Part shown: positions 12,838 to 62,610 of the stretch, piece after piece
Layout of the letters: each line of letters starts with the position of its first letter
Numbering within the stretch: the first letter of the stretch is position 1
Source: Flavobacterium sp. SUN052
GTDB lineage: Bacteria; Bacteroidota; Bacteroidia; Flavobacteriales; Flavobacteriaceae
Length of the DNA: 64,000 nucleotides
NCBI RefSeq assembly: GCF_028867935.1
Contig: NZ_JAPQNS010000008.1
Coordinates: 62,001-126,000 of the forward strand
Direction of reading: 5' to 3'
The notes under the pieces: generated by a model
The model's input: only the letters and a program-made list of their open reading frames with translations
What the model was told of the DNA's origin: nothing
Database searches by the model: none
Program-made: the position numbers and the translations under genes

Positions 12838-12879
12838 GCGGGTTGATAAATTAGTACTGAAGAAATAAAAATTATCATT

Positions 12880-12914
12880 TAAAGATACAGAAACAGACAA
12901 TGCAGACCGCCAAA
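12880..12914 (-). promoter_or_regulatory. Candidate HTCS1 promoter
   Basis: On the minus strand TTTG (12911-12914) is followed 23 bases later by TATCTTTA (12880-12887), a 7 of 8 match to the Bacteroidota -7 consensus TAnnTTTG. The -7 box lies 42 bases before the HTCS1 start. The TTTG falls in the loop of the hairpin at 12897-12929. Confidence 0.4.
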
Positions 12915-42791: not shown

Positions 42792-44163
42792 TGCGGGTTG
42801 TTTCGGGGTCGATGATGAAATCGCGGCCGGGAGCGGTGATTTTCTTGCCGTCGATGGTAATGTTCTCGAAGGTAACGTTACTGATGAGGTGTTTCTCGTC
42901 GTGACCCATCACCAGGCTGGGGATGCGCTGCCTGCCGTAATACTCAATGTTGCGAAAGGTCAGGTCGGAGAGCGAGCCTTTATCGGGGTTCCATTCGGCC
43001 CATCGATTTGGCTTGGTAACAATATGGATCATCCGCCAGTCGGAGTTGTCGATACGGATGCTGTCGAATAGAAAGCGACTCTTGTGCGCGCTGGCACCGT
43101 GTACCGAACAGATCACCGATTCGTTCTCATTGTCCCATTCGTGCTCCACCCGAATCACATCGATGTTGATGGCCTGGCAGTTGGAAAAGTCTTTGGTGCC
43201 GTTCCAGCCTATCTGAAACGGGGCTCCGTTTTCCATCTGCCAGATCACGCAGTTCCGGGCCACGGTGTTGGTGCTGTACAGCTTGATCGCGTCGTCGTTG
43301 ACCTTGAAAAAACAGTTTTCAATAAGCGCGTTTTCGCCTGTTGAGGTACCGTCGGTGCTAAACCACCACCCCATCATTTTCACATTGCGAATCTGGTGCC
43401 CCTGCCCGCTGAAGGTTATCATAAACCGGGGTGCGTGGATGATGATCAATCCCTCGACCAGAATGCTACGGGCGTTCCGCATCGAAATCATGTGATCGGC
43501 GGTACGGGCTGCATAGTCTTCGCCCGACAGAATACCACGCCCGCGGATGGTGATACCTTCGCTGTTTTCGCTGTAAAATTGTCCTTTGATATAAGCCCCG
43601 CCGTGCACATACACCGTTTTTCCGCTGGGAACTCGGTATTTCTCCCCAATCTGGTGCAGCCCAGGCCCGAAATAGATTACGTTGGTATCGCTCGGGTTGG
43701 GTACGTTCATTTCGAGCGGGTTGGCGAAAATGAGCAGTGGGTGCGTGATTTTTAGGCCCCGCTCAAACTCAACCGAATAGTGCCCCGGCTTCGAGAGGTC
43801 AAACGTCACGCTTGTCCCTTCTTTCTGCACCGCTACCCCTCGGTTGCGGGGCAACACCTGACAAAAATCAACCGCCCCGTTCAGCCGGGTCACGCGCACA
43901 GTCATCGTACCGCTAAATGAGAAATTAACCCAGGCTGTCGTTTTAGCGTTGTTGGTATAGTGCATCGCCTTCATCTGGTACACAAACGACTCCACCCTTT
44001 TACCGTTCTGCATCAGCTCGACGTGGTATTCGGTCGAGGGCATGATGTACGGGTTTCCAGCCCGAATGTTCTCGGTGGCTGGGTAGGTGATCAGTTTGGC
44101 CTGTGCGGGAGCGCAAAACCAGAGCAGGCTCAGCAGGTACCCAAAGTAAGCAACGTGTTTCAT
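42775..44163 (-). CDS. Beta-helix glycoside hydrolase, GH49/GH28 (clan GH-N) like
   Basis: 462-residue secreted protein; the signal ends near APAQA (residue 22). An N-terminal beta-sandwich (about 23-155; HYSVEFERGLKITHPLLIFANPLE) precedes the parallel beta-helix (IYFGPGLHQIG, TIRGRGILSGEDYAAR, HQIRNVKMMGWW). FSTDG (Asp271) and KVNDDAIKLY (Asp290, Asp291) followed by CVIWQMENGAPFQIGWN match the catalytic layout of GH49 dextranases, with Asp-Asp before an aromatic strand. It overlaps both neighbours (4 bases upstream, 17 downstream). The substrate may be pectic or another acidic glycan rather than dextran. Confidence 0.83.
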   Translation of the reverse strand: MKHVAYFGYLLSLLWFCAPAQAKLITYPATENIRAGNPYIMPSTEYHVELMQNGKRVESFVYQMKAMHYTNNAKTTAWVNFSFSGTMTVRVTRLNGAVDFCQVLPRNRGVAVQKEGTSVTFDLSKPGHYSVEFERGLKITHPLLIFANPLEMNVPNPSDTNVIYFGPGLHQIGEKYRVPSGKTVYVHGGAYIKGQFYSENSEGITIRGRGILSGEDYAARTADHMISMRNARSILVEGLIIIHAPRFMITFSGQGHQIRNVKMMGWWFSTDGTSTGENALIENCFFKVNDDAIKLYSTNTVARNCVIWQMENGAPFQIGWNGTKDFSNCQAINIDVIRVEHEWDNENESVICSVHGASAHKSRFLFDSIRIDNSDWRMIHIVTKPNRWAEWNPDKGSLSDLTFRNIEYYGRQRIPSLVMGHDEKHLISNVTFENITIDGKKITAPGRDFIIDPETTRNVQFR

Positions 44164-46559: not shown

Positions 46560-47527
46560 GGCTTTCCGAACTGGTTAACGATCGTGTCATACTGAGCCTG
46601 GGTTAGTGGCCACATGCAACCATGACGGGCGTTTGGCGGGGCAGCATAGCGCAGTTGCGACACGTTAAACCACGGCCCTGCGAGCGTAGGTGCTTCAGAA
46701 GCACTATAGCGCTGACCGGTGTACATTTCGTAGTACATGTACCAGCCCGTCCCGTCGGGTTTGGGTACTACCGTTGGGGCTTCGTGGTAGCTGGGCGATA
46801 CTGACGGTCCGGGGTAGCTGTAGGGGCCCGTCAGGCTACGCGACACCGCCACCCGCACCGATTTTCCGGTGGGCCACTGCGCCGTAGCTTCGCACTCATC
46901 TTTTAAAATGGCGTAATAGAAGCCGTTTTCTTTACGAATGATGACATCAATGCTACCCATTTCGTAAGGCAGCAACCGTTGTGGTTTGGTGAACGTGGTG
47001 AAGTCTTTGGTGAGTACATAGAAAGTCCGCATGCTACACCAGTACCGGGCGAAGTCCTCACGCGCAATGTCGGCAGCGTGGGCGTGCCAAGTAATGATAT
47101 ACTGGGCCGAAGCCTCGTCGTAGAACATTTTGGGAGCCCCGTACCAGCTTGGATTATCGAAAAAACCGGGCGTCGATTTTCCATCGAAAAGATCGATCGG
47201 TAACCGTTTAGCTTCGGTCCAACGAATGAGGTCAGTGGATGCCCATAGTGGAATCTGGCCGGATTTTTCCTCCACCCCAATCATGTAATAGCGTCCGTCG
47301 TGGCCACGGCTGATGTCGGGGTGACCCCGGTAGGCATCGTGCACGCGCTTGCCGTCGTTGAGCATCTCCCATTTTAGACCGTCTTTACTGACGGAATAAT
47401 AGAGGTGCCCATAATCGGCTTTAGTCATGTGGGCAAAGAGGTAGCCGGCCGGTTTAACGTCACCAAACTGAGCCTGGGTACGTTGGGACAGGCAAAAAAC
47501 AAGCAGGACAAGCGCAAGGAATCTCAT
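46556..47527 (-). CDS. GH43-like secreted glycosidase
   Basis: 323 residues; the signal peptide ends near RTQAQ (residue 20). The sequence starts with YLFAHMTKADYGHLYYSVSKDGLKW, then YRGHPDISRGHDGRYYMIG (the conserved Asp in HPDI), WYGAPKMFYDEASAQYIITWHAH, and ends with EAPTVVPKPDGTGWYMYYEMY (likely catalytic Glu). This is the GH43-like group often annotated as galactan or arabinan hydrolases. It heads the four-gene minus-strand run; its TGA overlaps the ATG of the fusion gene. An exact -7 box lies 31 bases upstream. Confidence 0.83.
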   Translation of the reverse strand: MRFLALVLLVFCLSQRTQAQFGDVKPAGYLFAHMTKADYGHLYYSVSKDGLKWEMLNDGKRVHDAYRGHPDISRGHDGRYYMIGVEEKSGQIPLWASTDLIRWTEAKRLPIDLFDGKSTPGFFDNPSWYGAPKMFYDEASAQYIITWHAHAADIAREDFARYWCSMRTFYVLTKDFTTFTKPQRLLPYEMGSIDVIIRKENGFYYAILKDECEATAQWPTGKSVRVAVSRSLTGPYSYPGPSVSPSYHEAPTVVPKPDGTGWYMYYEMYTGQRYSASEAPTLAGPWFNVSQLRYAAPPNARHGCMWPLTQAQYDTIVNQFGKP

Positions 47528-47557
47528 AAAACGTAGCTGTGATTGACGGTACTCATC

Positions 47558-47565
47558 AAAACTAC
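47558..47565 (-). promoter_or_regulatory. -7 box for the GH43/beta-helix operon
   Basis: TAGTTTTG on the minus strand matches TAnnTTTG exactly, 30 bases before the start codon at 47527. No TTG is seen at -33, so an activator is likely. Confidence 0.4.
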
Positions 47566-47695
47566 GCTCGCTATCAGGCTGAATTTTGGCGCATTTACCT
47601 TATTCCTTGCTCAATCGTCCATAGTGTTGCCTTGATGAATCTGGCATCGGCTGCGCGTTGTACCTTTCGAGTAGCACAAATTTATTATTCGTCCG

Positions 47696-48415
47696 ATGCA
47701 CCGTTCTTTTTTCACGCTACAACTGGCGCTCTTCGCCCTATCACCTTTCATTGGTACCGCGCAAACCGATGCTCCCCGTTGGAAGTCGATGTTCAACGGC
47801 AAGAATTTTAAGGGATGGACTATTATACACAGGGGCAAGCAGGCGCATGTCTGGGTGGCCGACGGGCAGATCAATGGTAATAAGCTCGCCAATACGCCCC
47901 AACACACGTTTATCACCACCAAAAAGCAATACGGCGATTTTATCCTGGAGGGCGACTGCAAGCTCGACGGCGACTTACATACGGGTTTTCTGTTCCGGCT
48001 CCAGAACGCCCCCGACACGGCGACCATTCCAATGTACGGCTATCAGGTCAAGATTGACCCAACTCCGCGCCGGTGGACGGGTGGTATCTTCGATGATTTT
48101 GGTAAAACCTGGCATTGGCTCTACACCCTCAAGGACGACGAGCGGGCGCGGACGGCTTTCCACATGAACGAGTGGAATACCTTCCGTATCGAAGCCATTG
48201 GCGACAACATGAAGGTGTGGATCAACGGCATTCCGACTGCCAATCTCATCAACGGGAAGTATGCCAAAGGCCACATCGCCCTGAAAGTGCACAGCATGGG
48301 GAATACACCCGAAAAAGAAGCCGTTCAGGTGCATTACAAAAACCTGCGCATCATCGGCCGCCATCCCGAGCGGTACACACTTCCAATGGATTTAGCCGCC
48401 CGAAAAGCCGATTAA
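47696..48415 (+). CDS. DUF1080 (3-keto-disaccharide hydrolase family) secreted protein
   Basis: 239 residues, signal ending near FIGTAQ (residue 23). SMFNGKNFKGW at the mature start, FILEGDCKLDGDLHTGFLFR and GYQVKIDP are DUF1080 marks; the fold is a concanavalin-like jelly roll. Some DUF1080 proteins hydrolyse 3-keto-glycosides made by Gfo/Idh/MocA dehydrogenases, a family also present in this window (15964-16998), though that copy is cytoplasmic. TACCTTTC at 47661 is a weak -7 candidate. The stop is 3 bases from the stop of the facing sulfatase gene. Confidence 0.87.
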   Translation: MHRSFFTLQLALFALSPFIGTAQTDAPRWKSMFNGKNFKGWTIIHRGKQAHVWVADGQINGNKLANTPQHTFITTKKQYGDFILEGDCKLDGDLHTGFLFRLQNAPDTATIPMYGYQVKIDPTPRRWTGGIFDDFGKTWHWLYTLKDDERARTAFHMNEWNTFRIEAIGDNMKVWINGIPTANLINGKYAKGHIALKVHSMGNTPEKEAVQVHYKNLRIIGRHPERYTLPMDLAARKAD

Positions 48416-48418
48416 GGG

Positions 48419-50008
48419 TCAGTCGTCGATGGCGGCTTTCTCGTAGTCTGACAGTTCGACCCAGCCGGTGCGGATTTTCTCACCCGCCATCACGCGTTCG
48501 TAGAAGCCCCGGTATTGTGGTTCGCACATGGGGTATTGCTCATAAAGGTGGCCAAAACCGATCTGCCGCAGGTCGTCCTGCGCCTTGAGCTTGGCCACCA
48601 TCTCGGCCTTGAGTTTCTGAGCTACAGCTTTGTATTTTGGGTCGTTGACAAGGTTTTTCATGCAATCGGGGTCGCGCCGAACATCATAGAATTCTTCAGG
48701 CGGACGTTTGCCAAAGTTCGTCTGCCAGTATGTTTTGTTCTGCCCCCGACGCCGAAGGTTTAGTATCAGCGTTTTGGTGGGGCTACCGTCGGTATTGAGA
48801 TAGCCGGTTTCAGGATTGCAAACGGGCCACCGACCGGGTTCATAGTTAGTCAGATATAGCATCCCATCTTTATGAATCCCCCGGATCGGATAACCCTGAT
48901 CGTGCGGCCGACCTATGTCGTGGCGCTCCTGCCCGACCAGCACAAAATTCCGCGCTGGGTTCACCTGCCCGCTAGTGCTGGCATTAAACAAATCGAACAG
49001 ACTGGTGCCGGTAATGGGCTGCATACCCGTGATATTTGGGTCGAGCCCAGCTGCCTGTAAAAACGTGGGTGCCAGGTCTATGAAGCTCACGTAATCATCC
49101 ACTTTGCGGTTCGGTTTGGCAATACCAGCCGGCCAGCGAATAGCCATGGGTATATGATTGGCGTTTTCGTACTGGTTACCCTTCACGCGTGGAAAGGGCA
49201 TGCCGTGGTCCGAGGTGAACACGATCAACGTATTATTTAGTTGGCCATTAGCCTCCAGCGTTTTCAGGATGCGGGCTACGTGGCTATCCATGTATTCGAT
49301 CTCGTAAGCATAATCGAGCAGGTCAGTACGGATGGTGAGTGAATCAGGCCAGTAGCCCGGCACGCGTTCAATTTGGCTTGGTTTCTTACCCGCTTTTCTG
49401 GTACCAACTCCGTATTCGTAGGCCCGGTGTGGCTCGTTGAAACCCACCCAGAACGACCAGGGTTTATCGCCCGCCTGCTGCACAAAATCGGTAAAGTTGG
49501 CTGCGTAGTCGTTATTGGCGATGAATTTAGCGGGTGGGTTTAGCTTGTGTTTGGCAAACTCAGGACCAAGCAGGTTGCGGGGCTGCCCCTCGTCGGTCAG
49601 GGCTTTCCCGGGGGCATATCCTTTGCCGGTGAAACCGGTAACGTACCCAGACTCGCCCAGGGCTTCCATGTAGGTTTTAAATTTGGTCGGGAAGAAAATC
49701 CAGTGATTGGCCGCTGCGTCGAGCTGCCAGGAATTTCGCCCCGTCATAATGCACGAACGGGAAGGAGCGCACTTGGCATTGGGCGTGTAGGCTCTATTGA
49801 ACAGAATTCCTTCCTGTGCAATGCGGTCGAAAGCTGGCGTATTCACCCAGGTACGTCCGTAGGCACTAAAGTCAGCTCCGGCATCATCGGCCACGATAAA
49901 GAGAATATTGGGGCGTTGGGCGGCTGGTTGAGTGGTTGGAAAAAATCCCGTAAAGCCAATAAGGGCCGTGCCGCTCAAAAAAGTCAGGAGAAGGAATAGT
50001 CGGTTCAT
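48419..50008 (-). CDS. Secreted sulfatase (Cys type)
   Basis: 529 residues, with a signal-like N-terminus ([19 protein letters not shown]). [17 protein letters not shown] is the metal motif; the active site is CAPSR with Cys80 followed by [20 protein letters not shown] stands in the GKWH position, and [22 protein letters not shown] closes the metal site. [14 protein letters not shown] is the usual C-terminal landmark. This is a heparan N-sulfatase-like S1 subgroup. It is 93 bases downstream of HTCS2 and may be under its control. Confidence 0.93.
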
Positions 50009-50100: not shown

Positions 50101-53100
50101 TTACAATGCTACAACCTGCATTCCGGTATGTTTATGGTTTATAGCACTTGGGGGGCAGCCGTATTTTTTCCGAAAAGCCCGCCCAAAGTAGTTCGGGTCG
50201 CTAAAACCCACCCGGGTGGCCGTGTCGGCGACACTTAAGCCCTGTTCGAGACACTGATGCGCAATGGTCAGGCGGAAATCATTCAAAAACTCCTTCACAC
50301 TCAAACCGGTAGCCAGTTTAATCCGCGACTGTAATAGCGACCGGCTGCACTGCATCTGTACTGCCAGCGTATCGACACTCAGATTGGAATCGCTATACTG
50401 CTCCTGGGTCAGCGATTGAAAACGGAGAAGAAAGACTTCCTCCTTATTCGTGATCGCCCCACCCGCAGTTGGTTTTAGCTGGTTTTTCGACAACTTACTT
50501 TTCATCCTTGCCAGCGTACGCAGATGATTAGCTAAAAGCAGATCCAGTTCGTTTAGGTTGAAGGGTTTACCAATGTAGCTGTCGGCTCCGCCGTTCAGGC
50601 CTTCGATAATGGTTTCATCGTCGGTATTATCCATGAGCAGCACAACCGGAATGGCCTCAGTTACCTCCGTCTGTTTCAACACCCGGCAGAGCGATTGTCC
50701 CTGCTGATCGTGCATTCCATCTTCACACAGGATCAGATCGGGATAGCTGGTTTTCGCTTTCTGGAGGGCTTCTGCAAAACTGTGGGCCGTTGAGATCCGA
50801 TACAGGCTTCCGAAATGTCGTTTCAGGAACTGCACCAGTTCCTTACTGCGGTCGGCAATCAGAATCGTAGGCAGGTAGACGGACTCGTCTGTCTCTGGCT
50901 GTTCAACGGTTTTACTCAGTGAGGCTGCGTCGACGGGTTCTAAACCAGGTTCATCCATCAGCCCGACAAGGCGGTACGGGAGCGAATCAGGCTTTTTGAT
51001 ACCAGCAAGTTGTCGATTCGCTGGGCTTTTACGAATAGGCAGGCTGATGGAAAGCGCTGGTGTACCGACCTGATTGGTAAATACGACGCTCCCATTCAGG
51101 AACTTTATCAGACTAAACGTCAACAGAATACCGAGACTGGCTGAGTCAGGTTGACTAAAAATCTCTTCGTTGTTCGTGGCTACCCGGTAGCTTGTCTTGA
51201 GTTGCTCAATTAAGTCGGGCCGGTTTGGCAGCACCATGTTCAGTACCAACTGACGCTGTTCCTGCCCTGTATCGCCCGGCGTTGCTACGTCGAGTTGAAA
51301 GGTGTCACCGTTTACGAATTCATTGGTGAGGTACACCAGCAAATTACCTAGAATGGTCTCAATCCGCCCTGCATCAAACCAGGCTAGCAGATACGGTTGT
51401 GAAAAAGTCAGTCGCTTACCAATAGCCCGTGGCACTAATAGCGGATCGAACGCGCCAACCGTTTCTTTTACGAACGTTACTACGTCCAGTTCTATCAGGT
51501 CGGGCTTCTGAGGGCCACTTTGCGTTTTTCGAAGCTCAGTCAACTGATCAATCAGCGACTTTAATCGGTTGGCATTTTTCCGTATGACCCGATAATTCAG
51601 ATGTGGCTCCGTTTTCCGGTCGGCAATGCTTAGCTCGTCCACTTCAGCCATAATGAGCGTCAATGGCGTTTTAAACTCGTTCGACAAAAAGGTAAAAAAA
51701 TTCAGTTTCTGCCGATTTAGCTCATCACTTTTTTCCCGTTCCATACGCTCCGCCTGCACGGCCATCCGCTGCTCGTTTAGGAATCGATTGAACCGTCGGT
51801 ACACCCACAGCGCACCCGCTAGTAGCAGCATGTAAAACCCGTAGGCGAATCCACTGCGCCAGAAGGGAGGGTTCACTACAATGCGAAGGCTCCGCTTGGT
51901 CGATGAGGGCATCCCATCCGGTCTGAACGTTCGAACATGAAAGGTGTAGCGCCCCGGCGACAGGTTAGTGTAGGTAATGGAATGGCCCGTAGTTTTGGGG
52001 TTCCAGGTGGGTTCAAACCCTTCCAGATACGATGTGTAGAGGGTATTGCCCTGGGCGAAATAATTGATGGCCACAAAATCAAGCGTAATCACGTTCTGGT
52101 CGTAGGCCAACTGGAGTTCTTCAATGCCGTCCAGCGACTTCGTCAGGGCAGAGCCCCGCCCCGCCGTTACCTCTTTATTGAATAGTTTCAGAGCCGTGAA
52201 ATAGAGTGGAGGGTCGATACGTAAGTTGGTGATAATGGATGGCGAAAACGAGGTCAATCCAGCTATCGTACCAAAGTAAAGCGTTCCCCTGCTGTCTTTG
52301 AACGCCGATTTGAAATTGAACTGACTGACCGGCAAACCACTTTCCAGCCCAAACGTGCTAACATGCCCCTGACGGGGCGTAAACGACACTAATCCCTGAT
52401 TGGTCGAAAACCAGTAAGTCCCGCTATTGTCTTCCAGTACACCATAAACGGTTTGGTGAGCCAGATGCGGATCGACAGGCGACGGAACGAACCGTTGTTG
52501 AGAATGACTCCAGCGTAAAACGCCCCCATCGAGGCTACTAAACCAGAGATTATGTCGGCGATCCTTATAGATCCCAATCAGTTGGTTGCTGTGCAGCACG
52601 GGCGTGTTCTGCGCGTCGAAATGCTGTAATTTACCCGTTCGGGGGTCGTACCGATAGATGCCTGCCGAGCGGGCAGCCAGCCAGATCGTACCGAGCGCGT
52701 CTTCGGCAATGTCATAAATAAAAGTCTGTCCGAGGATTTCGGGGCGAAATCGCCGAAAAACGCCCCGTCGTTCGTCGAACATGTTCACTCCCCGCTGCGT
52801 ACCAACCCACAGTTGGCCAGTTTTGTCGCGACAGAGGGCATAAACACTATTGTTGGAGAGTGAGGTGGAGTCGGCGGGGTTATGCCGGAATACTCGCTTT
52901 GCCTGAGTCGTGGGAGCTATGTAGTTCAGGCCGCCCAAGAAGGTGCCGACCCAAAGACCGCCGTTTTTGTCGGGCAACAGAGCATGTACATTGTTGTCGC
53001 TCAGTCCGTTTTGGGTGTTGTGATACGCCCACTGGCCTGTTGTGCGGTTCAGCCCCGTTACGCCCCCGTCTTCGGTGCCTATCCAAAGCCATCTGTCCGG

Positions 53101-54228
53101 CCCTTCATTCAGCTGACTAACCGCTTTGCCCGATAAACCCTGCCCGTTGGAAGCCGGGAAGAGATGATGAAACGACACATTGGCTGGACGGGCGTAGTTG
53201 ACACCACCAAAATACGTACCAAGCCAGACGGTCCCGTCGTGTCCCACACAGCTCGAATAAACCGAGCGATCGCTCAGATCGTGTGAGCTACCCACGGCAG
53301 ACTGATCGTAGCGATACGCAGTCTGGGTAGCCAGCGAATAGACGACCACACCCGACTCACTCCCCAGCCACAGATTGCCCGCCAGATCTTCGGATATGGT
53401 GCGAATGACCCGAACGCGGGGGCCGGGCAGTCGGCTGAACCAGTCTACTGCCTGGAAATTCATTGTCGATTCGTTCAACCGGAACAGGCTCCCGTTAGTA
53501 CCGAGCCAGATGATGCCTCGCCGGTTCTTAAACAGCACATAATCCCGAAACGTAAGGCCCTTTTCCGGCTCCAGCTCTGCAAGCGTTAAGGGTAAAAGCG
53601 TTTCTCCTTCAGAATTGATGAGCTTCAGGTTGCCATCCTGCATGACAATAAAGGCTCCTTTTCGAAACTCACAAATAGCCTGAACAGCCTGATCAGGCAT
53701 CACTCGTCGCACCGATTTTCCATAAGGTCCCAGCACAAAGATGCCTTGTCGTGTCGAAACCCATAATTCACCCGATGACACTCGCTTTATATCGGATACA
53801 AAAAGTGGATTTCCATTCGGGTCCTGACCATTGTTTAGAACGCCCGTCAACCCCTGTTTTTGGAATGAGTCGGTCGTTTCATCGTAATAAAACAGACCCA
53901 TTGCAGTGCCCACCCAGAGTACATGCTTATCTGCATACAGGCAGTTGATCCGATTAGATTCAACAGTTGGGTGACGGCTGTTGAAATAGTATTTTTTGAT
54001 TCGCTCGCTGTCGTATCGGTTCAAGCCATCACGGGTCCCAAACCACATAAAGCCTTTATAATCCTGCGCAATTGAAAAGACAGTGTTGTGCGATAATCCC
54101 TGTTGTGAGGTAATCCGGTCAAAGTAGATGGGCTGGGCCATTACTGACTGACACAGGAATAACAAGGCACTGATAATGAATAGTATACAGTGAGAACATC
54201 GCTTGAGAAGGCTTCCGAAAAGAATCAT
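50101..54228 (-). CDS. HTCS2: hybrid two-component regulator with degenerate phosphorelay
   Basis: About 1375 residues. The start chosen is ATG 54228; the frame is open 39 bases further up, but that stretch would cover a direct repeat. The signal region ([19 protein letters not shown]), two reg_prop propellers, a Y_Y_Y domain and a membrane helix (about 795-812) are normal. The HisKA motif reads [16 protein letters not shown], with Asn850 where His belongs (codon AAC). The HATPase domain keeps only GNLL and lacks DTGxG. The receiver reads [15 protein letters not shown], with Glu1169 in place of Asp, and Met for the usual Thr; GKPF is kept. The AraC HTH at the C-terminus looks intact. It may signal without phosphotransfer or depend on a partner. 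Confidence 0.93.
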
Positions 54229-54325: not shown

Positions 54326-54450
54326 AAAAGTACTGAATTCAAGCGTACCCTTCTGATTAAAATTGCACCATAAATCCTACGAATTATACTACCCGAATCA
54401 CGCTTCAACTGTGTGGGCGATGATGAGACAGACATTAACCAACCAATTTT

Positions 54451-57400
54451 ATGTTACAATCTTTACTTCAGGCTACTGCGAAACTCATGGTTCTGCTCGG
54501 CATTCTGCTTTGGGCTGGCGGAAGTACGCCCATTTTCGGGCAAACCATCCGCGTGCAAGGTCGCGTTCTATCGGCCGCTGACAATCAGGGTTTACCCTCG
54601 GTAAATATTCTGGTTAAAGGAACGGGACAGGGTACAACAACAGACCTCAACGGCAACTATGCACTTGAGGTACCCAGCCAATCCAGCACTCTTGTCTTTA
54701 GCTTTATTGGCTATGTCAGTCAGGAAGTAACAGCTGGTAATCGGAATATCATCAACATCACCCTTGCCGAAAATCCCCGTTCGCTCGACGAAGTTGTTGT
54801 TGTTGGCTATGGTACGGTACGGAAAAGCGACCTGACAGGGTCGGTAACCTCGCTGAAAGCGAATGAGTTGACTCGCGGAGCCAATGCGAACCTGCAGCAG
54901 GCTCTGATTGGCCGCTCCCCAGGGGTGCAGATATACCAGAAAAGTGGCGAGCCAGGTGCAGCCATGAGCATCCAGATTCGAGGAATCACATCGATCACTG
55001 GGAATAATGACCCGCTGTACGTAGTCGATGGATTACCAGTGAACGATGGGACCGCCGTTGGCTCATCAAGCCCGGCTGGAACAACCAGTAATCCCAACAA
55101 CAGGAACCCCCTGAACAGCCTCAACCCGTCGGACATCGAGTCCATTGAAATTTTGAAAGATGCTTCTGCAACGGCTATTTATGGCTCACGGGGAGCTAAT
55201 GGTGTGGTACTGATCACTACAAAACGGGGGAAAGAAGGCCGGCTTCGCGTGGAATATAATGGGACATATGGGGTACAGCAGGTGGCCCGCACCCAGCAAT
55301 ACATGACGGGCGACCAATATACAACGGTCATCAACGAAATTATTGATTTGGGTAAGCTGACTACTCCCAAAGTGACAGCCCCTAATGCCAATACAGATTG
55401 GCAAAGCTTGCTGCTCCGCGATGCACCTATCCAATCGCATGACCTCTCATTCAGCGGGGCAGGCGGCAATACCCGCTATTTTATTTCGGCCGGTTATTTC
55501 AATCAGGACGGAATTATTCTGAAATCTGGCACGACCCGCTACAATGCCCGGGTGAATGTTGAGAACAGTGTGGCGTCCAAATATAGTGTTGGCCTGAGCT
55601 TAAACACGTCCTACACCCGCGACAAGTACAACTCAACTGGCATCGGCCTTAACGACAATGCCAGTGCCTTGTACATGGCTCAGAACTATGATCCTACTGC
55701 CCCACCCTACAATGCCGACGGAACCTTTTACCGCTCACCCCTGATGGCCCCAATGGATAATCCATTGGCAGTTATAAATGGCCAGTACGGCATGGGCGAT
55801 ACGTACCGCACCTTTGGTAACCTCTACGCCGAATATTTTCTGGTGCCATCGCTCTCGGTGAAAGGGCGGGTGGGCGTAGACCTGAACGATAACCAGCGTT
55901 TTTTCTGGATAGACCCCTCAACGCTCACCGGGCTTTCGTACAATGGTTTTGCCGACGTACGTGATGGCAAGCGCGGATACTACCTGACCGAAGCAACTAT
56001 GAATTTCAACAAAACCTTCGGCGAAAATCACCGGATAACGGCGGTCGCCGGTACCACTTATGAGCGCTACACGTCGAGCGTGCTGATTGCCAACTCCCGT
56101 TCATTTGCCCTTCCCGACCTGACCTTCGATGCTCTCGGCACCGGCGACAACACCCTCAACGGTGTGGGCAGCGGGCGACAGGAAAACATTCTGGTGTCGT
56201 ATCTGGGCCGGGTCAACTACTCCTTCAAAGGCAAATACCTGCTTACAGCTTCCCTACGGGCCGACGGCTCGGCTCGGTTTGGCCCCAACAAGCGGTTTGG
56301 CTATTTCCCTTCAGCAGCGCTTGCGTGGCGGATTCACGACGAAGATTTTCTGAAAAATTTGCCCTGGTTGAGCGAGTTGAAACTACGAGCAAGCTACGGC
56401 GCTACCGGAAACCAGCCTACCGGAAATTACCTTTACTTTTCGACGTTTTCGGCGGGTCGGCAGGCTATATTCAATGGCAACCGATCCTCTTCACTCCAAC
56501 CCAGCCGGAGCGCCAATCCCGATTTACAATGGGAATCGGCCGAGCAGGTTGACGCAGGTCTTGATTTTGGGTTTTTCAATGCCCGGTTGACGGGTAGCCT
56601 GGATTATTACAACCGCAAAACCTCCAATTTGCTCTACGACATTCCCCAGCCTGTCAGCACGGGGTTTGGTAGCCGCGTTGAAAATGTGGGGAGTATGCAG
56701 AATTCGGGTCTGGAGCTGGCTCTGAAGGCTATTGTGCTCGACCAGAACGGGCTGAGGATCGATGTAGGTGGTAACCTGACAACGCTGAAAAATAAAGTAT
56801 TGACCCTTGGCAACGTAACCCAGTCCATCGGAACGGCTGCGGGCAACATCAATCAGATTAGCATTCTCAAACCAGGCGAATCTATCGGCGCGTTCTACGG
56901 ATACATTGTCGATGGCGTTTGGCAAACGGGCGACGATTTGAGTCAGGGACAGACTGGGGTGCGGCCTGGCGATTTGAAATACCGCGACATTGATGGCAAC
57001 AAAATCATCAATGCCAGCGACCGGGTCATCATTGGGCAGTCGTTACCCAAGTTCTTTTATGGCTTTAACAGCAGTATCTCATGGAAAGGTCTGGTGGCCG
57101 AAATTTTCTTCGAAGGGTCGCAGGGGGCCAGTATGCTCAACAGTAGCCTCGTTGATTCGTACTACCCGGTCGATTATCGGCGCAACAAACTGGCTGAGCC
57201 GTACCTGAACCGCTGGACGCCAACTAACCCCACAAACGAATACCCTTCGTTTTTACCCAATGATGTGCAGGGCCAACGGCAAGTCAACACAAAAACGGTG
57301 GAAGATGCCTCGTACCTGCGCCTACAGTCTATCCGGTTGTCGTACAAAATTCCGGTGCCGCAAAATCGGTATTTGGGGGGTGCATTTGTATTCGTGAATG

Positions 57401-57540
57401 GACAAAACCTCTACACCTTTACCCGCTACAGTGGTGTAGATCCAGCGGCTAATGCGCTGGGTAGCAACATTGTCCGGGTCGATTATAACACCTATCCGCT
57501 TACCCGCACGCTAACAGCGGGGGTTAATCTGCAATTCTGA
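54451..57540 (+). CDS. SusC3: TonB-linked outer-membrane glycan transporter
   Basis: 1029-residue SusC-family transporter. The signal ends near STPIFGQ (residue 31). The Ig-like domain (IRVQGRVLSAADNQGLPSVNI to about 107) is followed by SLDEVVVVGYGTVRKSDLTGS, a plug (IQIRGITSITGNNDPLYVVDG, then DIESIEILKDASATAIYGSRG) and a barrel ending in NLQF. It is the first gene of a five-gene plus-strand operon running to 63767 with gaps of 36, 26, 34 and -4 bases. HTCS2 is divergent from it, which is the usual arrangement of a regulator and its target. Confidence 0.96.
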   Translation: MLQSLLQATAKLMVLLGILLWAGGSTPIFGQTIRVQGRVLSAADNQGLPSVNILVKGTGQGTTTDLNGNYALEVPSQSSTLVFSFIGYVSQEVTAGNRNIINITLAENPRSLDEVVVVGYGTVRKSDLTGSVTSLKANELTRGANANLQQALIGRSPGVQIYQKSGEPGAAMSIQIRGITSITGNNDPLYVVDGLPVNDGTAVGSSSPAGTTSNPNNRNPLNSLNPSDIESIEILKDASATAIYGSRGANGVVLITTKRGKEGRLRVEYNGTYGVQQVARTQQYMTGDQYTTVINEIIDLGKLTTPKVTAPNANTDWQSLLLRDAPIQSHDLSFSGAGGNTRYFISAGYFNQDGIILKSGTTRYNARVNVENSVASKYSVGLSLNTSYTRDKYNSTGIGLNDNASALYMAQNYDPTAPPYNADGTFYRSPLMAPMDNPLAVINGQYGMGDTYRTFGNLYAEYFLVPSLSVKGRVGVDLNDNQRFFWIDPSTLTGLSYNGFADVRDGKRGYYLTEATMNFNKTFGENHRITAVAGTTYERYTSSVLIANSRSFALPDLTFDALGTGDNTLNGVGSGRQENILVSYLGRVNYSFKGKYLLTASLRADGSARFGPNKRFGYFPSAALAWRIHDEDFLKNLPWLSELKLRASYGATGNQPTGNYLYFSTFSAGRQAIFNGNRSSSLQPSRSANPDLQWESAEQVDAGLDFGFFNARLTGSLDYYNRKTSNLLYDIPQPVSTGFGSRVENVGSMQNSGLELALKAIVLDQNGLRIDVGGNLTTLKNKVLTLGNVTQSIGTAAGNINQISILKPGESIGAFYGYIVDGVWQTGDDLSQGQTGVRPGDLKYRDIDGNKIINASDRVIIGQSLPKFFYGFNSSISWKGLVAEIFFEGSQGASMLNSSLVDSYYPVDYRRNKLAEPYLNRWTPTNPTNEYPSFLPNDVQGQRQVNTKTVEDASYLRLQSIRLSYKIPVPQNRYLGGAFVFVNGQNLYTFTRYSGVDPAANALGSNIVRVDYNTYPLTRTLTAGVNLQF

Positions 57541-57576: not shown

Positions 57577-59040
57577 ATGAAATTTCCAGTTCGATATATT
57601 CTTACAGTGAGCTGCCTTCTATCCCTAACCGCCTGCGAGAAGGCCTTAGAAGTAACTCCTAAAGGGGAATTTTCCCCAGCCAACGTGCTCACATCCGAAG
57701 CGGGCATTAAATCACTGCTGTTTTCGTCCTACGCTCAGGCGCAGACGCAGACCAACTCCCGGTTTGTCATTAACGATTCGGAGGTCTCCACCGACGTTGG
57801 ATTCAACACCGGTGGGGCCGAAAACGGTCAGTTAATCACCCTTGTCAATTTCACCTGGGACCCATCCCTTGGCACGTTCAATGGCGATATGTGGGAACCC
57901 AACTACCGCACCATCCGCGATGCGAACGGGGTAATTGAAAATATCGATAAGGTCAATACCTCCGATGCCGTTAAGAAATTGTTCCGGGCCGAAGCGCGAG
58001 TGTTGCGGGCAGATGCCTACGCAAAGCTGTACAGTTTCTTCGGGGCGGTGCCACTGAGAACCCCCGCCAACCAGACGGGGCCACTAGCGCGAGCATCCGA
58101 CGCGGAGATAAAAACGTTTATCGAAACCGAAATTAGCCAGTCGCTGGCCGATTTACCTGATCCTGGCAAAGAAGAGTCGTGGGGCCGCTACAATAAAGGA
58201 ATTGCCAACGCGATTCTGGCCAAATTTTACCTCAACACCAAACAGTGGCAGAAAGCCGCAGACGCGGCTAAAGCGGTTATGGACTTCAACTATTACGCGT
58301 TGAATTCGAATTACGCAACCATGTTTCGAATAGAAAACGAAGGAGCCACCAACCGCGAAATGATTCTGGTGTTGCAATGTCGTCCCGAAGATCCCTTTGG
58401 TAACTGGTATCAGGCCGGTGCGTTGCCTGCTGCTTACAAAAGCAGTCCTCAGTTTCCGAACTACGTTTATAAAACGACCATGTCGAACTTTGCCACCCAA
58501 TACCGGCTTCGCACAGCCTTTACTAAAAGTTTTGCCCCCATAGACAAGCGTCTGGAGCTAATTTGTACCAGCTATATCAATAACAGCAACCAGACGGTCG
58601 ATATTTCGACGGGTGACAATGCCCGCAGCTTTAAATATTGGGATAACAATACGGTTGGCAATAACAGCGGAACCGACGTTCCAGTGATCCGTTACGCTGA
58701 CATTCTGCTCACCCGCGCCGAAGCCCTGAACGAACTGAACGGCCCCACTGCCGAGGCCTTTACGCTTATCAACGCCGTTAGAACGCGCGCGGGTATCCCC
58801 AACCTAACCCTGAACGACACGCCAGCAAAAGATGCTTTTCGCACGGCCATATTCCGCGAACGCGGCTGGGAGTTTGTGGCTGAAGGGAAACGACGGGAAG
58901 ACCTCATCCGGCAGGGTACATTTATTTCACTGGCGCTGGCCCGGGGCGTAGCTAACGCCAAACCCGAGCGTGAATTGTTCCCTATTCCGCAGGTTGAAAT
59001 TGATGCCAATCCGCTTTGTTTGCAAAATCCCGGTTACTAA
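57577..59040 (+). CDS. SusD3: surface glycan-binding lipoprotein
   Basis: 487-residue SusD/RagB lipoprotein with the signal MKFPVRYILTVSCLLSLTAC (lipobox Cys20). FRAEARVLRADAYAKLYSFFGAVPL, KGIANAILAKFYLNTKQW, IRYADILLTRAEALNEL, ERGWEFVAEGKRREDLIRQGTF and the C-terminal LFPIPQVEIDANPLCLQNPGY are family features. It forms the outer-membrane glycan import complex with SusC3. Confidence 0.95.
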   Translation: MKFPVRYILTVSCLLSLTACEKALEVTPKGEFSPANVLTSEAGIKSLLFSSYAQAQTQTNSRFVINDSEVSTDVGFNTGGAENGQLITLVNFTWDPSLGTFNGDMWEPNYRTIRDANGVIENIDKVNTSDAVKKLFRAEARVLRADAYAKLYSFFGAVPLRTPANQTGPLARASDAEIKTFIETEISQSLADLPDPGKEESWGRYNKGIANAILAKFYLNTKQWQKAADAAKAVMDFNYYALNSNYATMFRIENEGATNREMILVLQCRPEDPFGNWYQAGALPAAYKSSPQFPNYVYKTTMSNFATQYRLRTAFTKSFAPIDKRLELICTSYINNSNQTVDISTGDNARSFKYWDNNTVGNNSGTDVPVIRYADILLTRAEALNELNGPTAEAFTLINAVRTRAGIPNLTLNDTPAKDAFRTAIFRERGWEFVAEGKRREDLIRQGTFISLALARGVANAKPERELFPIPQVEIDANPLCLQNPGY

Positions 59041-59066: not shown

Positions 59067-60770
59067 ATGAAAATAAACCAGATTCCGCTATTGGTTCTAA
59101 TCATGGGCATCTCGGCCACCTTCTTGTTGCTGAGTGGCTTCGGGAGGGTGGAACCCAAAGCAGTTGACCGGCCCAATATTATCCTGATTATGGCCGACGA
59201 CCTGGGCTTTTCGGACCTGGGGTGCTATGGCGGGGAGGTCAAAACGCCCAATCTGGATTATCTGGCACAGAACGGACTGCGTTACACCCAGTTTTATAAT
59301 ACGTCGCGTTGCTGCCCCACTCGTGCGGCCTTACTCACGGGCCTCTACAATCATCCCGCCGGTATTGGCAAAATGACCGACGATGAGACTCTGCCCGGTT
59401 ACCGGGGTCACCTGACCGAGAACACCGTTACGCTGGCCGAAGTGCTGAAATCGGCGGGTTATCAGACGGGTATGACCGGCAAATGGCACGTTTCGAACAC
59501 CGTGGTGCAGAGAACGCCCACCAATCAACAGGCCTGGCTCAATCATCAGCAGAATTTTGGTGATTTTTCGCCCCTCGATCAGTACCCGACTCGTCGGGGG
59601 TTCGATCGGTATTTTGGCAACATCTGGGGCGTAGTGGACTTCTTCGATCCGTTTAGCTTGGTGAGTGGCGAAAAACCAGTAACCAGTGTTCCCAAAAACT
59701 ATTATCATACGGATGCCATCAGCGACACCTCGGTGGCCTACATCCGGCAGTTTGCGCGTTCAGCCCAGCCGTTTTTTCTCTACGTGGCTGAAACCGCTCC
59801 GCATTGGCCCCTGATGGCACCCGCCGAAGACATCAAAAAATACGAAAACACGTACAAAAGTGGTTGGGACGCCATTCGGAAAGCTCGCTACGACCGAATG
59901 GTTAAACTTGGTCTGATTGATCCTAAAAAAACGGGTCTTTCGGAGCGGTGGGAGCCGGAGCAATCCTGGGAAGCGAACCCGAATAAAGACTGGGATGCGC
60001 GGGCCATGGCCGTTCATGCCGCTATGATCGACCGGATGGATCAGGGTATTGGTCGGATCATTAAGGCTTTGCGCGAAACGGGCGAGCTGGATAATACGCT
60101 GATTCTATTTTTGTCAGACAACGGAGCCAGCCCCGAAAACTGCGCGGCTTACGGCCCCGGATTCGATCGGCCCAGCCAAACTCGCGACGGTCGTCAGATT
60201 GTGTATGATGTGAAGAAAGAAGTTATGCCGGGTGCGCAGACCTCTTTCGTTTCGATTGGGCCACGCTGGGCTAATGTATCAAATACCCCCTATCGGTTGG
60301 CAAAAGCGGAGTCGCATGAGGGGGGTATTCACACTCCACTTGTCGCGTTCTGGCCAAAAGGTATAAAAGCCAAAAAAGGAGGCTTCAGCCAACAGGTGGG
60401 CCATGTTATGGATGTTATGCCCACCCTGATTGAACTGACTGGGGCTACATACCCCAAGACGTACCGGGGCCACACCATTACACCTAGCACGGGCATTAGC
60501 CTGGTGCCTTCATTCAGTGGAAAACGGGGCGGTCACCAGACGCTTTTCAACGAGCATTTTGGAGCGCGCTATGCCCGGTCGGGTCCCTGGAAATTAGTGT
60601 CGACGAGCCGCGATACAACCTGGCAACTTTATAATTTAGCCAACGATGGGTCCGAACAGCGCAATGTAGCGACCCAGTACCCCGACCAAGTGCAGGAGTT
60701 GGCTAATCGCTGGCATGAATGGGCCAAATTGAATACTGTTTTCCCAAAACCCCAGCCCCGGAAACGATAA
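59067..60770 (+). CDS. Secreted arylsulfatase (Cys type)
   Basis: 567-residue type I sulfatase; signal-like N-terminus ending near residue 27. ILIMADDLGFSDLGCYGGEV is the metal motif. The active site is CCPTR: Cys82 is the formylglycine site, followed by AALLTGLYNHPAGIG. MTGKWHVS and LFLSDNGASPENC follow, and YRLAKAESHEGGIHTPLVAFWP is typical of arylsulfatase (S1_4-like) enzymes. The Thr in place of Ser in CxPSR is common in this subgroup. It lies 26 bases after SusD3 in the same operon. Confidence 0.94.
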   Translation: MKINQIPLLVLIMGISATFLLLSGFGRVEPKAVDRPNIILIMADDLGFSDLGCYGGEVKTPNLDYLAQNGLRYTQFYNTSRCCPTRAALLTGLYNHPAGIGKMTDDETLPGYRGHLTENTVTLAEVLKSAGYQTGMTGKWHVSNTVVQRTPTNQQAWLNHQQNFGDFSPLDQYPTRRGFDRYFGNIWGVVDFFDPFSLVSGEKPVTSVPKNYYHTDAISDTSVAYIRQFARSAQPFFLYVAETAPHWPLMAPAEDIKKYENTYKSGWDAIRKARYDRMVKLGLIDPKKTGLSERWEPEQSWEANPNKDWDARAMAVHAAMIDRMDQGIGRIIKALRETGELDNTLILFLSDNGASPENCAAYGPGFDRPSQTRDGRQIVYDVKKEVMPGAQTSFVSIGPRWANVSNTPYRLAKAESHEGGIHTPLVAFWPKGIKAKKGGFSQQVGHVMDVMPTLIELTGATYPKTYRGHTITPSTGISLVPSFSGKRGGHQTLFNEHFGARYARSGPWKLVSTSRDTTWQLYNLANDGSEQRNVATQYPDQVQELANRWHEWAKLNTVFPKPQPRKR

Positions 60771-60804: not shown

Positions 60805-62610
60805 ATGAATTTACTAAAAACAGCCCTGGGGTTGATCGGGTATTTTGTTGCCCTAACCAACGGATTTGGGCAACAACGTAACTACCACCCCTCGATGGAC
60901 GAAGCCGCTGTAACGAACGTTTCGGCCGATGCACAACCCATAAAACCCCTGTTTGATGCTGAGCTAACGGATGTTTACGTGCTACCCTACGCCGGTGCGT
61001 ACTATCTGACCGGTACATCCCCTAAAGGCGAGATTCACCTCTGGTCGTCGCCCGATCTGAAACACTGGACCAAACGGGGCATTATCTGGAATAAACCCGC
61101 TGTTGCCCCACAGATTCATGCTATAAACGGAGTGTTTTACATCGTGTATGCTAAACCGGCGGGCGGTATTGAACTGCTTTCGTCGCCTAAAATTGATGGA
61201 ACATTCAGCCAGCTAAGCACGCTGACAGCTGAAGGTAGCGACCCCGGTTTGTTTGCGGATACAGACGGAAGTGTTTATCTCTACTATGGCGATGGCTGGC
61301 TGGCCCCGCTTTCGCCCGATCTGAAAACCCTCCGGCAGGAGCCCAAAAAAATCACTCCTGCGCCCACCAAAAAAGACAAAAACGACGAGTTCAATTTCCC
61401 CTTTACCTTTAAACGCGATCCACCCGTAACGGACCGGGTGGGTAAACATGGGTCTTTTCTGACAAAAATTGGCACCAAATATTATCTGTTTGCGGGCGAA
61501 GTGACCGGGCGAATGGGCCTGCCCACTGACGACGTGTATTATGCTACTGCCGATCGAATCGACGGCCCCTGGAGCGATCGCAACCTGGTTATTCCGCACG
61601 GTAGTCAGACGGCCGTTTTTGAAGCGAACGGCCAATTATATGCCACATTTTCAGGCAACGACCCCGGCGCGGCCATTCAGCATAAACCAGCCTTGCTTGA
61701 ATTGGTCACCAATGAGCTGGGCCTTTTGCTGCCCTCCGCCAATGTCGTCCTCGAAAAAGGGGTAGTCGGGCGTTCAAAGCCACTGCTGGGCAACGAGCGC
61801 ATGCGGGACCCGTCGGTAACGATGGGGGGTGATGGAAACTATTATGCCGTTGGCACCAAAGATTTTGGCTGGGTGTATCCCGAAGGGGGTATCGAGATGT
61901 GGCGGTCATCTGACCTGACCCGCTGGGAGCCAATGGGGTTCGTCTGGACGTTTGCCAAAGATGGATCGGCCTGGATGAAAAATACCGAACATAAACGGGG
62001 CGACCGAAAAATGCTCTGGGCGCCCGAAGTGGCGTATGTGAAAGGTAATTACTGGATTACGATGTGCATGAACATGGGGAAAACGAGCATTCTTAGAAGC
62101 ACAACGGGCAAACCTGAGGGACCCTATCAGGAAATTGCCACCGCGCCAATTGCCGATGGCATCGACGGGTTTTTGTTTGAGGATGCCGACAAATCGGTGT
62201 ATCTGATTTGGGGCGATGGCAACATTGCCCGAATGAACGAAACCATGAGCGGTTTTGCCGAACCGCCCCGCAAACTTAAGACGGTAAACAACGAACACGT
62301 TGGCTATGAAGGCAACTGCCTGATCAAAGCTAACGGCAAATACATTATGACTGGAGCCGAATGGAATGGACCACTCCGTACAGAAGGCACTTATGACTTA
62401 ATGTATGCCGTATCGGACAACATTTATGGCCCCTACAGCAACCGCAAGGTAGGGATTCCCCATGGCGGGCACAGCACGGTGTTTAGAGGTAAAAACGGGC
62501 AATGGTATTCGACAATTTTCGGTAACGACCGTACCGCTCCCTTCCGGCGCAGGCTCGGCATTGTTCCGTTGACTATTTCAAACGATTTCACACTAAAACC
62601 ACAGGAATGA
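60805..62610 (+). CDS. Double GH43-like propeller protein
   Basis: 601 residues, signal ending near NGFGQ (residue 23). Two five-bladed GH43-like propellers lie in tandem: N-terminal about 45-310 (AELTDVYVLPYAGAYYLTG, SDPGLFADTDGSVYLYYGDG) and C-terminal about 325-600 (MRDPSVTMGGDGNYYAVGT, APEVAYVKGNYWITMCMN, GIDGFLFEDADKSVYLIWGDG). The RDPSV Asp and the APEV/IDGF segments suggest the second propeller is closer to a working GH43, while the first has lost the usual DP start. Its ATGA end overlaps the next gene. Confidence 0.85.
   Translation: MNLLKTALGLIGYFVALTNGFGQQRNYHPSMDEAAVTNVSADAQPIKPLFDAELTDVYVLPYAGAYYLTGTSPKGEIHLWSSPDLKHWTKRGIIWNKPAVAPQIHAINGVFYIVYAKPAGGIELLSSPKIDGTFSQLSTLTAEGSDPGLFADTDGSVYLYYGDGWLAPLSPDLKTLRQEPKKITPAPTKKDKNDEFNFPFTFKRDPPVTDRVGKHGSFLTKIGTKYYLFAGEVTGRMGLPTDDVYYATADRIDGPWSDRNLVIPHGSQTAVFEANGQLYATFSGNDPGAAIQHKPALLELVTNELGLLLPSANVVLEKGVVGRSKPLLGNERMRDPSVTMGGDGNYYAVGTKDFGWVYPEGGIEMWRSSDLTRWEPMGFVWTFAKDGSAWMKNTEHKRGDRKMLWAPEVAYVKGNYWITMCMNMGKTSILRSTTGKPEGPYQEIATAPIADGIDGFLFEDADKSVYLIWGDGNIARMNETMSGFAEPPRKLKTVNNEHVGYEGNCLIKANGKYIMTGAEWNGPLRTEGTYDLMYAVSDNIYGPYSNRKVGIPHGGHSTVFRGKNGQWYSTIFGNDRTAPFRRRLGIVPLTISNDFTLKPQE

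What the first reader, a model, noticed from the sequence alone, without database searches (positions are those of the whole stretch)
50101..54228. HTCS with Asn for the kinase His and Glu for the receiver Asp
The conserved FFTNISHE(L/F)RTP box reads [12 protein letters not shown] (Asn850, codon AAC at 51681-51679), the ATPase domain lacks DTGxG, and the ungapped receiver alignment to HTCS1 puts Glu1169 at the phospho-Asp. Sensor, Y_Y_Y, membrane and AraC parts look intact, and the gene lies divergent from SusC3/SusD3. This suggests regulation without autophosphorylation: ligand-driven conformational control, a permanently active receiver mimic (Glu), or a dimer with another HTCS such as intact HTCS1 at 8581.
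Basis: partly seen in the sequence, partly recalled or inferred. Interest (0 to 1): 0.85.

Follow-up and report, generated by a model that had tools for sequence, protein, structure and literature searches.

The report
Glycan sensor that lost its kinase
This bacterial sugar-sensing gene switch looks like a kinase-based regulator but has lost the parts needed for phosphate signalling, and a family of relatives has lost most of them too while keeping its DNA site, so it probably signals by shape change alone.

Summary
Window 50101-54228 (-) encodes a 1375-aa hybrid two-component (HTCS) homologue with Asn850 at the phospho-His, no HATPase_c match and Glu1169 at the receiver Asp. It is neither a one-off nor a pseudogene. 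In a sensor-only tree 42 such proteins form one branch (support 99). Of 43 members, 41 have Asn for His and none has the ATPase D-G motif; of 42 with a receiver, the Mg-binding Asp is Arg/Lys in 39 and Thr is Leu in 37. Asp to Glu is not the group's trait: 37 of 42 keep Asp. Ten of ten ORFs are intact, and the DHp helices have the lowest dN in 14 of 16 ortholog pairs. Nine of nine ortholog loci lie divergent from SusC/SusD. Matrices trained on their susC promoters, query left out, have their best hits in the window at the query's own susC promoter. The group also lost the Ser/Cys-His part of the receiver-DBD inhibitory motif. Best reading: a pseudokinase/pseudoreceiver HTCS working as a one-polypeptide transmembrane transcription factor; how the signal passes is inferred. 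One HTCS lacking the His (BT4236) is already in print.

The parts
50101..54228 (-). pseudo-HTCS gene, 1375 aa
   Evidence: intact ORF, member of a conserved clade
52129..54132 (-). periplasmic Reg_prop double-propeller sensor (about residues 33-700)
   Evidence: Pfam Reg_prop 149.7 bits; PDB 4a2l match over residues 19-791
51874..52062 (-). Y_Y_Y domain (residues 723-785)
   Evidence: Pfam 37.2 bits
51514..51708 (-). DHp/HisKA helices (841-905)
   Evidence: Pfam HisKA 26.7 bits; in the orthologs DHp dN/dS is 0.00-0.03 in the 11 of 16 pairs where it could be computed
51679..51681 (-). Asn850 codon in place of phospho-His
   Evidence: Asn in 41 of 43 clade members
50974..51513 (-). degenerate ATPase (CA) region (906-1085), no N-box Asn, no DxGxG
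   Evidence: no HATPase_c match
50542..50865 (-). pseudo-receiver (1122-1229)
   Evidence: Pfam Response_reg 49.5 bits
50848..50850 (-). Arg1127 in place of the metal-binding Asp (DD2)
   Evidence: R/K in 39 of 42
50722..50724 (-). Glu1169 in place of the phospho-Asp
   Evidence: Glu in 5 of 42, Asp in 37 of 42
50632..50634 (-). Met1199 in place of the switch Thr/Ser
   Evidence: Leu in 37 of 42
50647..50658 (-). EAIP in place of S/CHIP (receiver side of the REC-DBD inhibitory motif)
50140..50367 (-). AraC-type DNA-binding domain (1288-1363)
   Evidence: Pfam HTH_18 64.5 bits
54297..54331 (+). operator-like block: direct repeat AATTGGTC with 21-bp period followed by AAAAGT, in the HTCS-susC intergenic region
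   Evidence: top window hit of an ortholog-trained matrix
54359..54387 (+). conserved susC promoter block AAAATTGCAnnATnnATnCnnnGAATTAT
   Evidence: top window hit of an ortholog-trained matrix
54451..57540 (+). SusC-like TonB-dependent transporter, divergent target
   Evidence: Pfam Plug, CarbopepD_reg_2
57577..59040 (+). SusD-like protein
   Evidence: Pfam SusD_RagB
59067..60770 (+). sulfatase of the same locus
   Evidence: Pfam Sulfatase
60805..62610 (+). GH43 enzyme of the same locus
   Evidence: Pfam Glyco_hydro_43

Best explanation
The protein is an HTCS-derived, membrane-spanning transcription regulator that no longer uses phosphate. Shown: it and its relatives form one lineage in which the kinase His, the ATP-binding motifs and the receiver's metal pocket and switch Thr were lost; in the orthologs the sensor, DHp helices, receiver and AraC domain are under purifying selection; and the susC promoter opposite the gene carries an operator-like block shared with the orthologs. 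Inferred: the propeller dimer binds an oligosaccharide, the movement passes through the membrane and the intact DHp coiled coil, and this places or frees the two AraC domains on the direct repeat so that susC is switched on. The receiver would act as a rigid spacer: Arg/Lys replaces Mg in its pocket, as in the constitutively active CheY D13K, and the motif that normally lets the receiver hold back the DNA-binding domain is lost. Likelihoods: no autophosphorylation in cis, 0.97; functional regulator of the adjacent susC, 0.9; mechanical coupling as the way of signalling, 0.55.
For: Clade: 42 rows on one side of one branch, support 99, tree from sensor columns only. Losses: His to Asn 41 of 43, G1 Asp and Gly 43 of 43, N-box Asn absent in 41 of 43, DD2 to Arg/Lys 39 of 42, Thr to Leu 37 of 42; in 138 canonical rows His, N-box Asn, DD2 Asp and receiver Asp are kept in 138 of 138. 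Function: 10 of 10 ORFs without inner stops; whole-protein dN/dS 0.06-0.11 in the 15 of 16 ortholog pairs where it could be computed; DHp dN relative to sensor 0.33 on average against 0.40 in canonical pairs. Context: 9 of 9 ortholog loci divergent from SusC and a SusD-like gene (Pfam run on 2 of the 9 and on the window). Operator: ortholog-trained matrices for operator and promoter, query left out, both have their best hit in the window at the query's susC promoter (4.4 against -2.7 bits; 28.5 against -5.4 bits); a 21-bp repeat period fits the HTCS direct repeats of Ravcheev et al. (PMC3878776, passages). Derepression: Ser/Cys plus His of S/CHIP-DK kept in 0 of 42 clade members against 81 of 138 canonical; Gao et al. 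report that substitutions in this motif raise DNA binding without phosphorylation (PMC11253607, abstract and sections). CheY D13K is called constitutively active in PMC4671073 and, as the double mutant D13K/Y106W, in PMC11528121 (passages).
Against: No biochemistry and no structure model: the prediction machine was busy at every attempt. The phospho-Asp is kept in 37 of 42 clade members, which a receiver freed from phosphate need not do. In Myxococcus EpsW the equivalents of D13K and of Asp-to-Glu were not active. The S/CHIP-DK motif is imperfect in many canonical rows too (full motif 58 of 138). The AraC domain evolves faster relative to the sensor in this group (0.84 against 0.27), so its output may have changed. 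The query's matrix scores (operator 4.4, promoter 28.5 bits) are far below those of the orthologs left out in turn (39.9-63.5 and 44.7-71.8), and the 21-bp repeat is clear in the query (9 of 11) but weaker in the orthologs (4-7 of 11). The query itself had no close relative for a dN/dS test.
Confidence: 0.6

Rival explanations
1. Constitutive DNA binder: with the inhibitory motif lost, the AraC pair always sits on the operator and acts as a steady activator or a repressor; the sensor only adjusts stability or is on its way to being useless.
For: Loss of the Ser/Cys-His part of the motif in 42 of 42. Gao et al. cite BT2391 (FHIP-QK) as an HTCS that represses its locus.
Against: Sensor and DHp remain under purifying selection in the orthologs; the operator-like block lies upstream of the conserved promoter block, as for an activator (inference).
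Confidence: 0.17
2. Partner-driven: the protein forms a heterodimer with, or is phosphorylated by, an intact HTCS or other kinase, as DivL modulates CckA.
For: Receiver Asp kept in 37 of 42 and Lys in 42 of 42; the genome has 15 HisKA-type Y_Y_Y proteins with the His; an inactive ChrS helps cross-phosphorylation of ChrA by HrrS (PMC9491836, passages).
Against: The metal-binding DD2 Asp is lost in 42 of 42 and Thr/Ser in 38 of 42, so phosphoryl transfer to this receiver should fail (inference). One box pattern flagged no canonical kinase in the nine ortholog loci.
Confidence: 0.13
3. The Glu at 1169 gives this paralog a permanently active receiver, unlike most of its relatives.
For: Glu substitution activates CheY, CheB or NtrC according to PMC4671073 (passage); Glu needs 4 changes in the clade and is in 0 of 138 canonical rows.
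Against: Most relatives with the same architecture keep Asp; the same paper found the Glu form of EpsW inactive; Glu is a common replacement at this site in pseudo-receivers (PMC12632262 passage); the pocket is already broken by Arg1127 and Met1199.
Confidence: 0.08
4. Decaying pseudogene.
For: Loss of catalytic motifs; a long end branch (0.48) in the tree.
Against: Ten of ten ORFs intact, low dN/dS in the orthologs, conserved synteny and promoter. The query itself had no close relative for a dN/dS test.
Confidence: 0.02

Closest known systems
Bacteroides HTCS family (for example BT4663, BT4124, BT1754)
   Same: Domain order, sensor similarity to solved HTCS sensors (4a2l), AraC output, divergence from susCD, direct-repeat operator with 21-bp period
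   Different: No phospho-His, no ATPase match, broken receiver pocket, inhibitory REC-DBD motif lost
BT4236 of B. thetaiotaomicron
   Same: An HTCS with Gln for the kinase His, a non-consensus CSIP-EK motif and a phosphorylation-independent mechanism suggested in print (PMC11253607, discussion part 1)
   Different: Mentioned as a single protein; whether its ATPase and receiver pocket are lost was not seen; the present group is a multi-genus clade
Pseudo-histidine kinases such as DivL and ChrS_CA-fs
   Same: Kinase homologue without kinase chemistry that still signals (PMC9491836 passages)
   Different: Those act on another kinase or regulator; here the DNA-binding output is on the same chain
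Pseudo-receivers (PsR, ALR domains)
   Same: Receiver homologue lacking DD2 and Thr (PMC12632262 abstract, sections 6 and 7 and passages)
   Different: Arg/Lys at DD2 with Asp mostly kept is the usual state of this lineage; fused to a pseudokinase
SusR
   Same: Works like it: a periplasmic sugar sensor and DNA-binding part on one membrane protein next to sus genes (PMC3878776 passages)
   Different: Different DNA-binding domain and much longer operator spacing (67 or 77 bp); kinship was not tested here

Membership tests
HTCS (catalytically active) | Reg_prop/Y_Y_Y periplasmic sensor | tested here: met
   Pfam; 4a2l match
HTCS (catalytically active) | HisKA with phospho-accepting His | tested here: not met
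   Asn850; HisKA score 26.7 bits just under the cut-off
HTCS (catalytically active) | HATPase_c ATP-binding domain | tested here: not met
   No Pfam match at E 0.001; N-box Asn and DxGxG absent
HTCS (catalytically active) | Receiver with DD, D, T/S, K | tested here: not met
   D-R, E, M, K in the query
HTCS (catalytically active) | AraC-type output domain and susCD neighbourhood | tested here: met
HTCS (catalytically active) | Direct-repeat operator with about 21-bp period | tested here: met
   In sequence only; period; binding not tested
HTCS (catalytically active) | Transmembrane helix between Y_Y_Y and DHp | not tested
   A hydrophobic stretch after about residue 797 is seen by eye; no predictor run
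Pseudo-histidine kinase | HisKA lacking phosphotransfer residues, conserved in relatives | tested here: met
Pseudo-histidine kinase | No ATP binding or autophosphorylation | not testable with these tools
   needs biochemistry
Pseudo-receiver | Receiver homologue lacking conserved active-site residues | tested here: met
   Response_reg 49.5 bits with DD2, D and T changed

The most novel reading that the evidence does not exclude
A whole lineage of HTCSs has turned from phosphorelay to purely mechanical transmembrane signalling: the DHp coiled coil of a former kinase carries the glycan signal straight to a DNA-bound AraC pair, with a receiver locked by an Arg/Lys-Asp salt bridge in place of Mg and phosphate.
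Probability: 0.5. Interest if true: 0.78.

Novelty: new variant of a known kind. Interest (0 to 1): 0.62.

Why it matters
How pseudo-receivers are switched is called a mystery in a 2025 article (PMC12632262, abstract). Here nature supplies a clade of regulators with the phosphate chemistry removed but sensor, coiled coil, DNA domain and operator kept, so one can ask directly whether DHp movement alone can control transcription. It also warns that at least one public name in the group ('histidine kinase' for P0024) is wrong about the chemistry.

Tried and rejected
Pseudogene and sequencing error: rejected by the clade, intact ORFs and low dN/dS in the orthologs. Glu phospho-mimic as the group trait: rejected. 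Relatives in the genome collection's own 'family' of the window: 1 of 397 genomes matched the Asn-box pattern, the window's own; three genomes of its 'genus' proved distant, so this count says nothing about true relatives. In the family of S. validum 8 of 222 genomes carry a member, and 3 of 390 in a sample of its order, all three already among the eight. Cut-offs there were strict (E 1e-32 and 1e-30), so distant branches such as P0033-P0041 would be missed.

Genome-wide, the loose operator pattern with up to 2 mismatches is not specific: 3 matches against 4 of the reversed control; two of the three are the two susC promoters. The pattern was drawn from the query itself, so its zero expectation shows only rarity; one search is the fair test. 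In one search offsets 29-31 also score high (4.8-5.4 against 5.6 at 21), probably from an A-rich stretch; L100 was read there in another register and L101 and L103 were misanchored in the alignment (right).

Row choice: the 43 and 138 rows leave out P0130, an ATPase-less protein that groups with canonical rows; P0032 is truncated, has no receiver letters and was left out of the tree, which used 29 of the other rows. Both protein searches listed only the best 120 of 7831 and of 5493 hits, so the canonical rows are no random sample. The dN ratios use overlapping pairs (16 and 65) from few lineages, and dS exceeds 1 in most. Support for the clade was 82 in the first tree and 99 in the second; both are quick trees without bootstrap. 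The count of Y_Y_Y genes with and without the His was finished by eye where the pattern failed; two of the 24 matches lie under the family cut-off.

Literature: ten searches listed no paper on a clade of kinase-less HTCSs; two searches returned nothing at all, and only open-licence papers are held.
Full report
What is there. The gene at 50101-54228 (-) encodes 1375 aa with Reg_prop, Y_Y_Y, HisKA, Response_reg and HTH_18 matches and no HATPase_c match. The kinase box reads [12 protein letters not shown] with Asn850 coded by AAC at 51681-51679. In alignments to HTCS1 and to the solved HTCS fragment 12aw_A, Glu1169 faces the phospho-Asp; in the latter Arg1127 faces the second acidic-pocket Asp and EAIP faces CHIP. 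HTCS1 at 8581-12900 has HATPase_c.

It is a lineage. The protein search listed 120 of 7831 hits, of which 40 share the broken kinase; a second search from a distant member added P0121. With the window gene and a paralog on another contig (L091) this gives 43 proteins. States over 43 (42 with a receiver): Asn for His 41 (His in P0002 and P0033); H+1 Glu kept 43; H+4 Thr kept 40; N-box Asn kept 2; G1 Asp and Gly kept 0; DD2 Arg 30, Lys 9, Gln 2, Asn 1; receiver Asp 37, Glu 5; Leu for Thr 37; Lys kept 42. In the 138 canonical rows His, N-box Asn, DD2 Asp, receiver Asp and Lys are each kept in all 138, G1 Asp in 135. Thus the His, ATPase and pocket losses are group traits; the Glu is not.

One origin. 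A tree from sensor columns only, so that the trait cannot drive it, puts 42 degenerate rows on one side of one branch against 29 others (support 99), with two changes at the His site and four at the receiver Asp; the earlier tree with other rows gave 82 for a like split. P0033, the deepest branch, still has the His but no ATPase motif and no DD2 Asp, so ATPase and pocket probably went before the His (inference). P0002 sits deep inside the Asn group and has His, probably a chance reversal. Names in the listing include Spirosoma, Fibrella, Larkinella and Hymenobacter.

It is used. Nine ortholog loci (L091 of the own genome and eight from the family of S. validum) all have the gene divergent from a SusC homologue and a SusD-like gene; Pfam was run on two of the nine (L091, L100) and on the window and agrees. 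The query has its own, different SusD and a sulfatase/GH43 set. All ten ORFs lack inner stops. In the four closest pairs (L100/L101, L104/L105, L100/L103, L101/L103) overall dN/dS is 0.07-0.08, DHp 0.000-0.004, AraC 0.04-0.05, receiver 0.02-0.07 and CA 0.09-0.13; only Y_Y_Y in L104/L105 is higher (0.14). Over all 16 pairs DHp has the lowest dN in 14; in two of the L102 pairs Y_Y_Y is lower, and in pairs with L102 and in L091/L098 DHp dN reaches 0.08-0.10. Against canonical HTCS pairs, mean dN relative to the sensor is 0.33 against 0.40 for DHp, 1.81 against 1.28 for CA, 0.93 against 0.71 for the receiver and 0.84 against 0.27 for AraC (16 and 65 overlapping pairs). So the DHp helices are as constrained as in working kinases, though they carry no phospho-His; the CA region is mildly relaxed; the AraC domain has diverged more.

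DNA site. The nine susC promoters share an operator-like block (ATTGnAC ... CAAAAGTnAnGAT, with deviations in L100 and L102) and a promoter block with AATTGCAAAATCA identical in 9 of 9. A repeat test peaks at 21 bp (mean 5.6 of 11; 9 in the query, 4-7 in the orthologs), though offsets 29-31 come near; 21 bp is the period of HTCS direct repeats reported for Bacteroides (16 plus 5 and 12 plus 9 bp; PMC3878776, passages; one other was 14 plus 6). Matrices built from the nine orthologs without the query were run over both strands of the window: the best hit of each is in the query's own intergenic region, in the same order and at nearly the same spacing (55 against 54 bp): operator 54298 at 4.4 bits (next -2.7), promoter 54353 at 28.5 bits (next -5.4). 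The query's scores are, however, well below those of the orthologs left out in turn (39.9-63.5 and 44.7-71.8). The DNA target has thus been kept, loosely, between paralogs about 50% alike that face different loci.

How it may work. Gao, Wu and Stock (PMC11253607; abstract, sections 6-8 and the first part of the discussion read) report that in most HTCSs the receiver holds back the DNA-binding domain through a S/CHIP-DK motif and that substitutions in it raise DNA binding without phosphorylation. In the present group both Ser/Cys and His are kept in 0 of 42 and His in 5 of 42, against 81 and 117 of 138 canonical rows; the DBD Asp is mostly Glu (28 of 42) and the Lys is kept in 41 of 42 (Arg in the query). 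The same paper mentions BT4236, with Gln for the His and CSIP-EK, as suggesting a phosphorylation-independent mechanism. Arg/Lys at DD2 corresponds to CheY D13K (numbering recalled), called constitutively active in PMC4671073 and used with Y106W in PMC11528121 (passages), though the same change did not activate EpsW. Taken together, the best reading is a membrane-bound transcription factor in which ligand-driven movement of the DHp coiled coil sets the two AraC domains on the direct repeat. The coupling step is inference; constitutive binding and partner-driven models remain.

Known or new. A single HTCS without the His is in print (BT4236), and pseudo-receivers and pseudo-histidine kinases are known (PMC12632262, PMC9491836). 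A conserved clade with kinase His, ATPase and receiver pocket all lost while DHp, DBD and operator are kept was not found in ten searches of the open-licence library. It is a new variant of a known kind.

Noticed in passing
G000 (whole genome of the window): the genome search places this genome with a 'genus' of which three members share only 52-54% identity of a glutamate synthase-like protein with S. validum, while the window's genome shares 84% with it; the genome appears mislabelled and is Spirosoma-like.
   Followed up: partly
L091 8340-12395 (-), G000:C1: A second pseudo-HTCS of the same clade in the same genome, with receiver Asp kept and QAIP-EK motif, divergent from its own SusC/SusD and next to a glutaminase A-like gene. 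Its operator-like block resembles the query's, so cross-regulation between the two loci is possible.
   Followed up: partly
P0130 (protein): A separate ATPase-less HTCS that groups with canonical rows and keeps the His: Asn for the G1 Asp, Gln at DD2. It may be an independent, earlier stage of the same loss.
   Followed up: no
P0009, P0026 (proteins): Members (P0009 is named Hymenobacter) with Gln instead of Arg/Lys at the receiver DD2 site; they form one supported pair that branches off early in the Spirosoma-type part of the clade.
   Followed up: no
window 44160-50008: GH43 (44160-46559), a weak GH43 match (46556-47527, below cut-off), a 3-keto-disaccharide hydrolase-like gene (47696-48415) and a sulfatase (48419-50008) lie on the other side of the regulator, suggesting a sulfated or arabinose-containing glycan as substrate (inference).
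   Followed up: no
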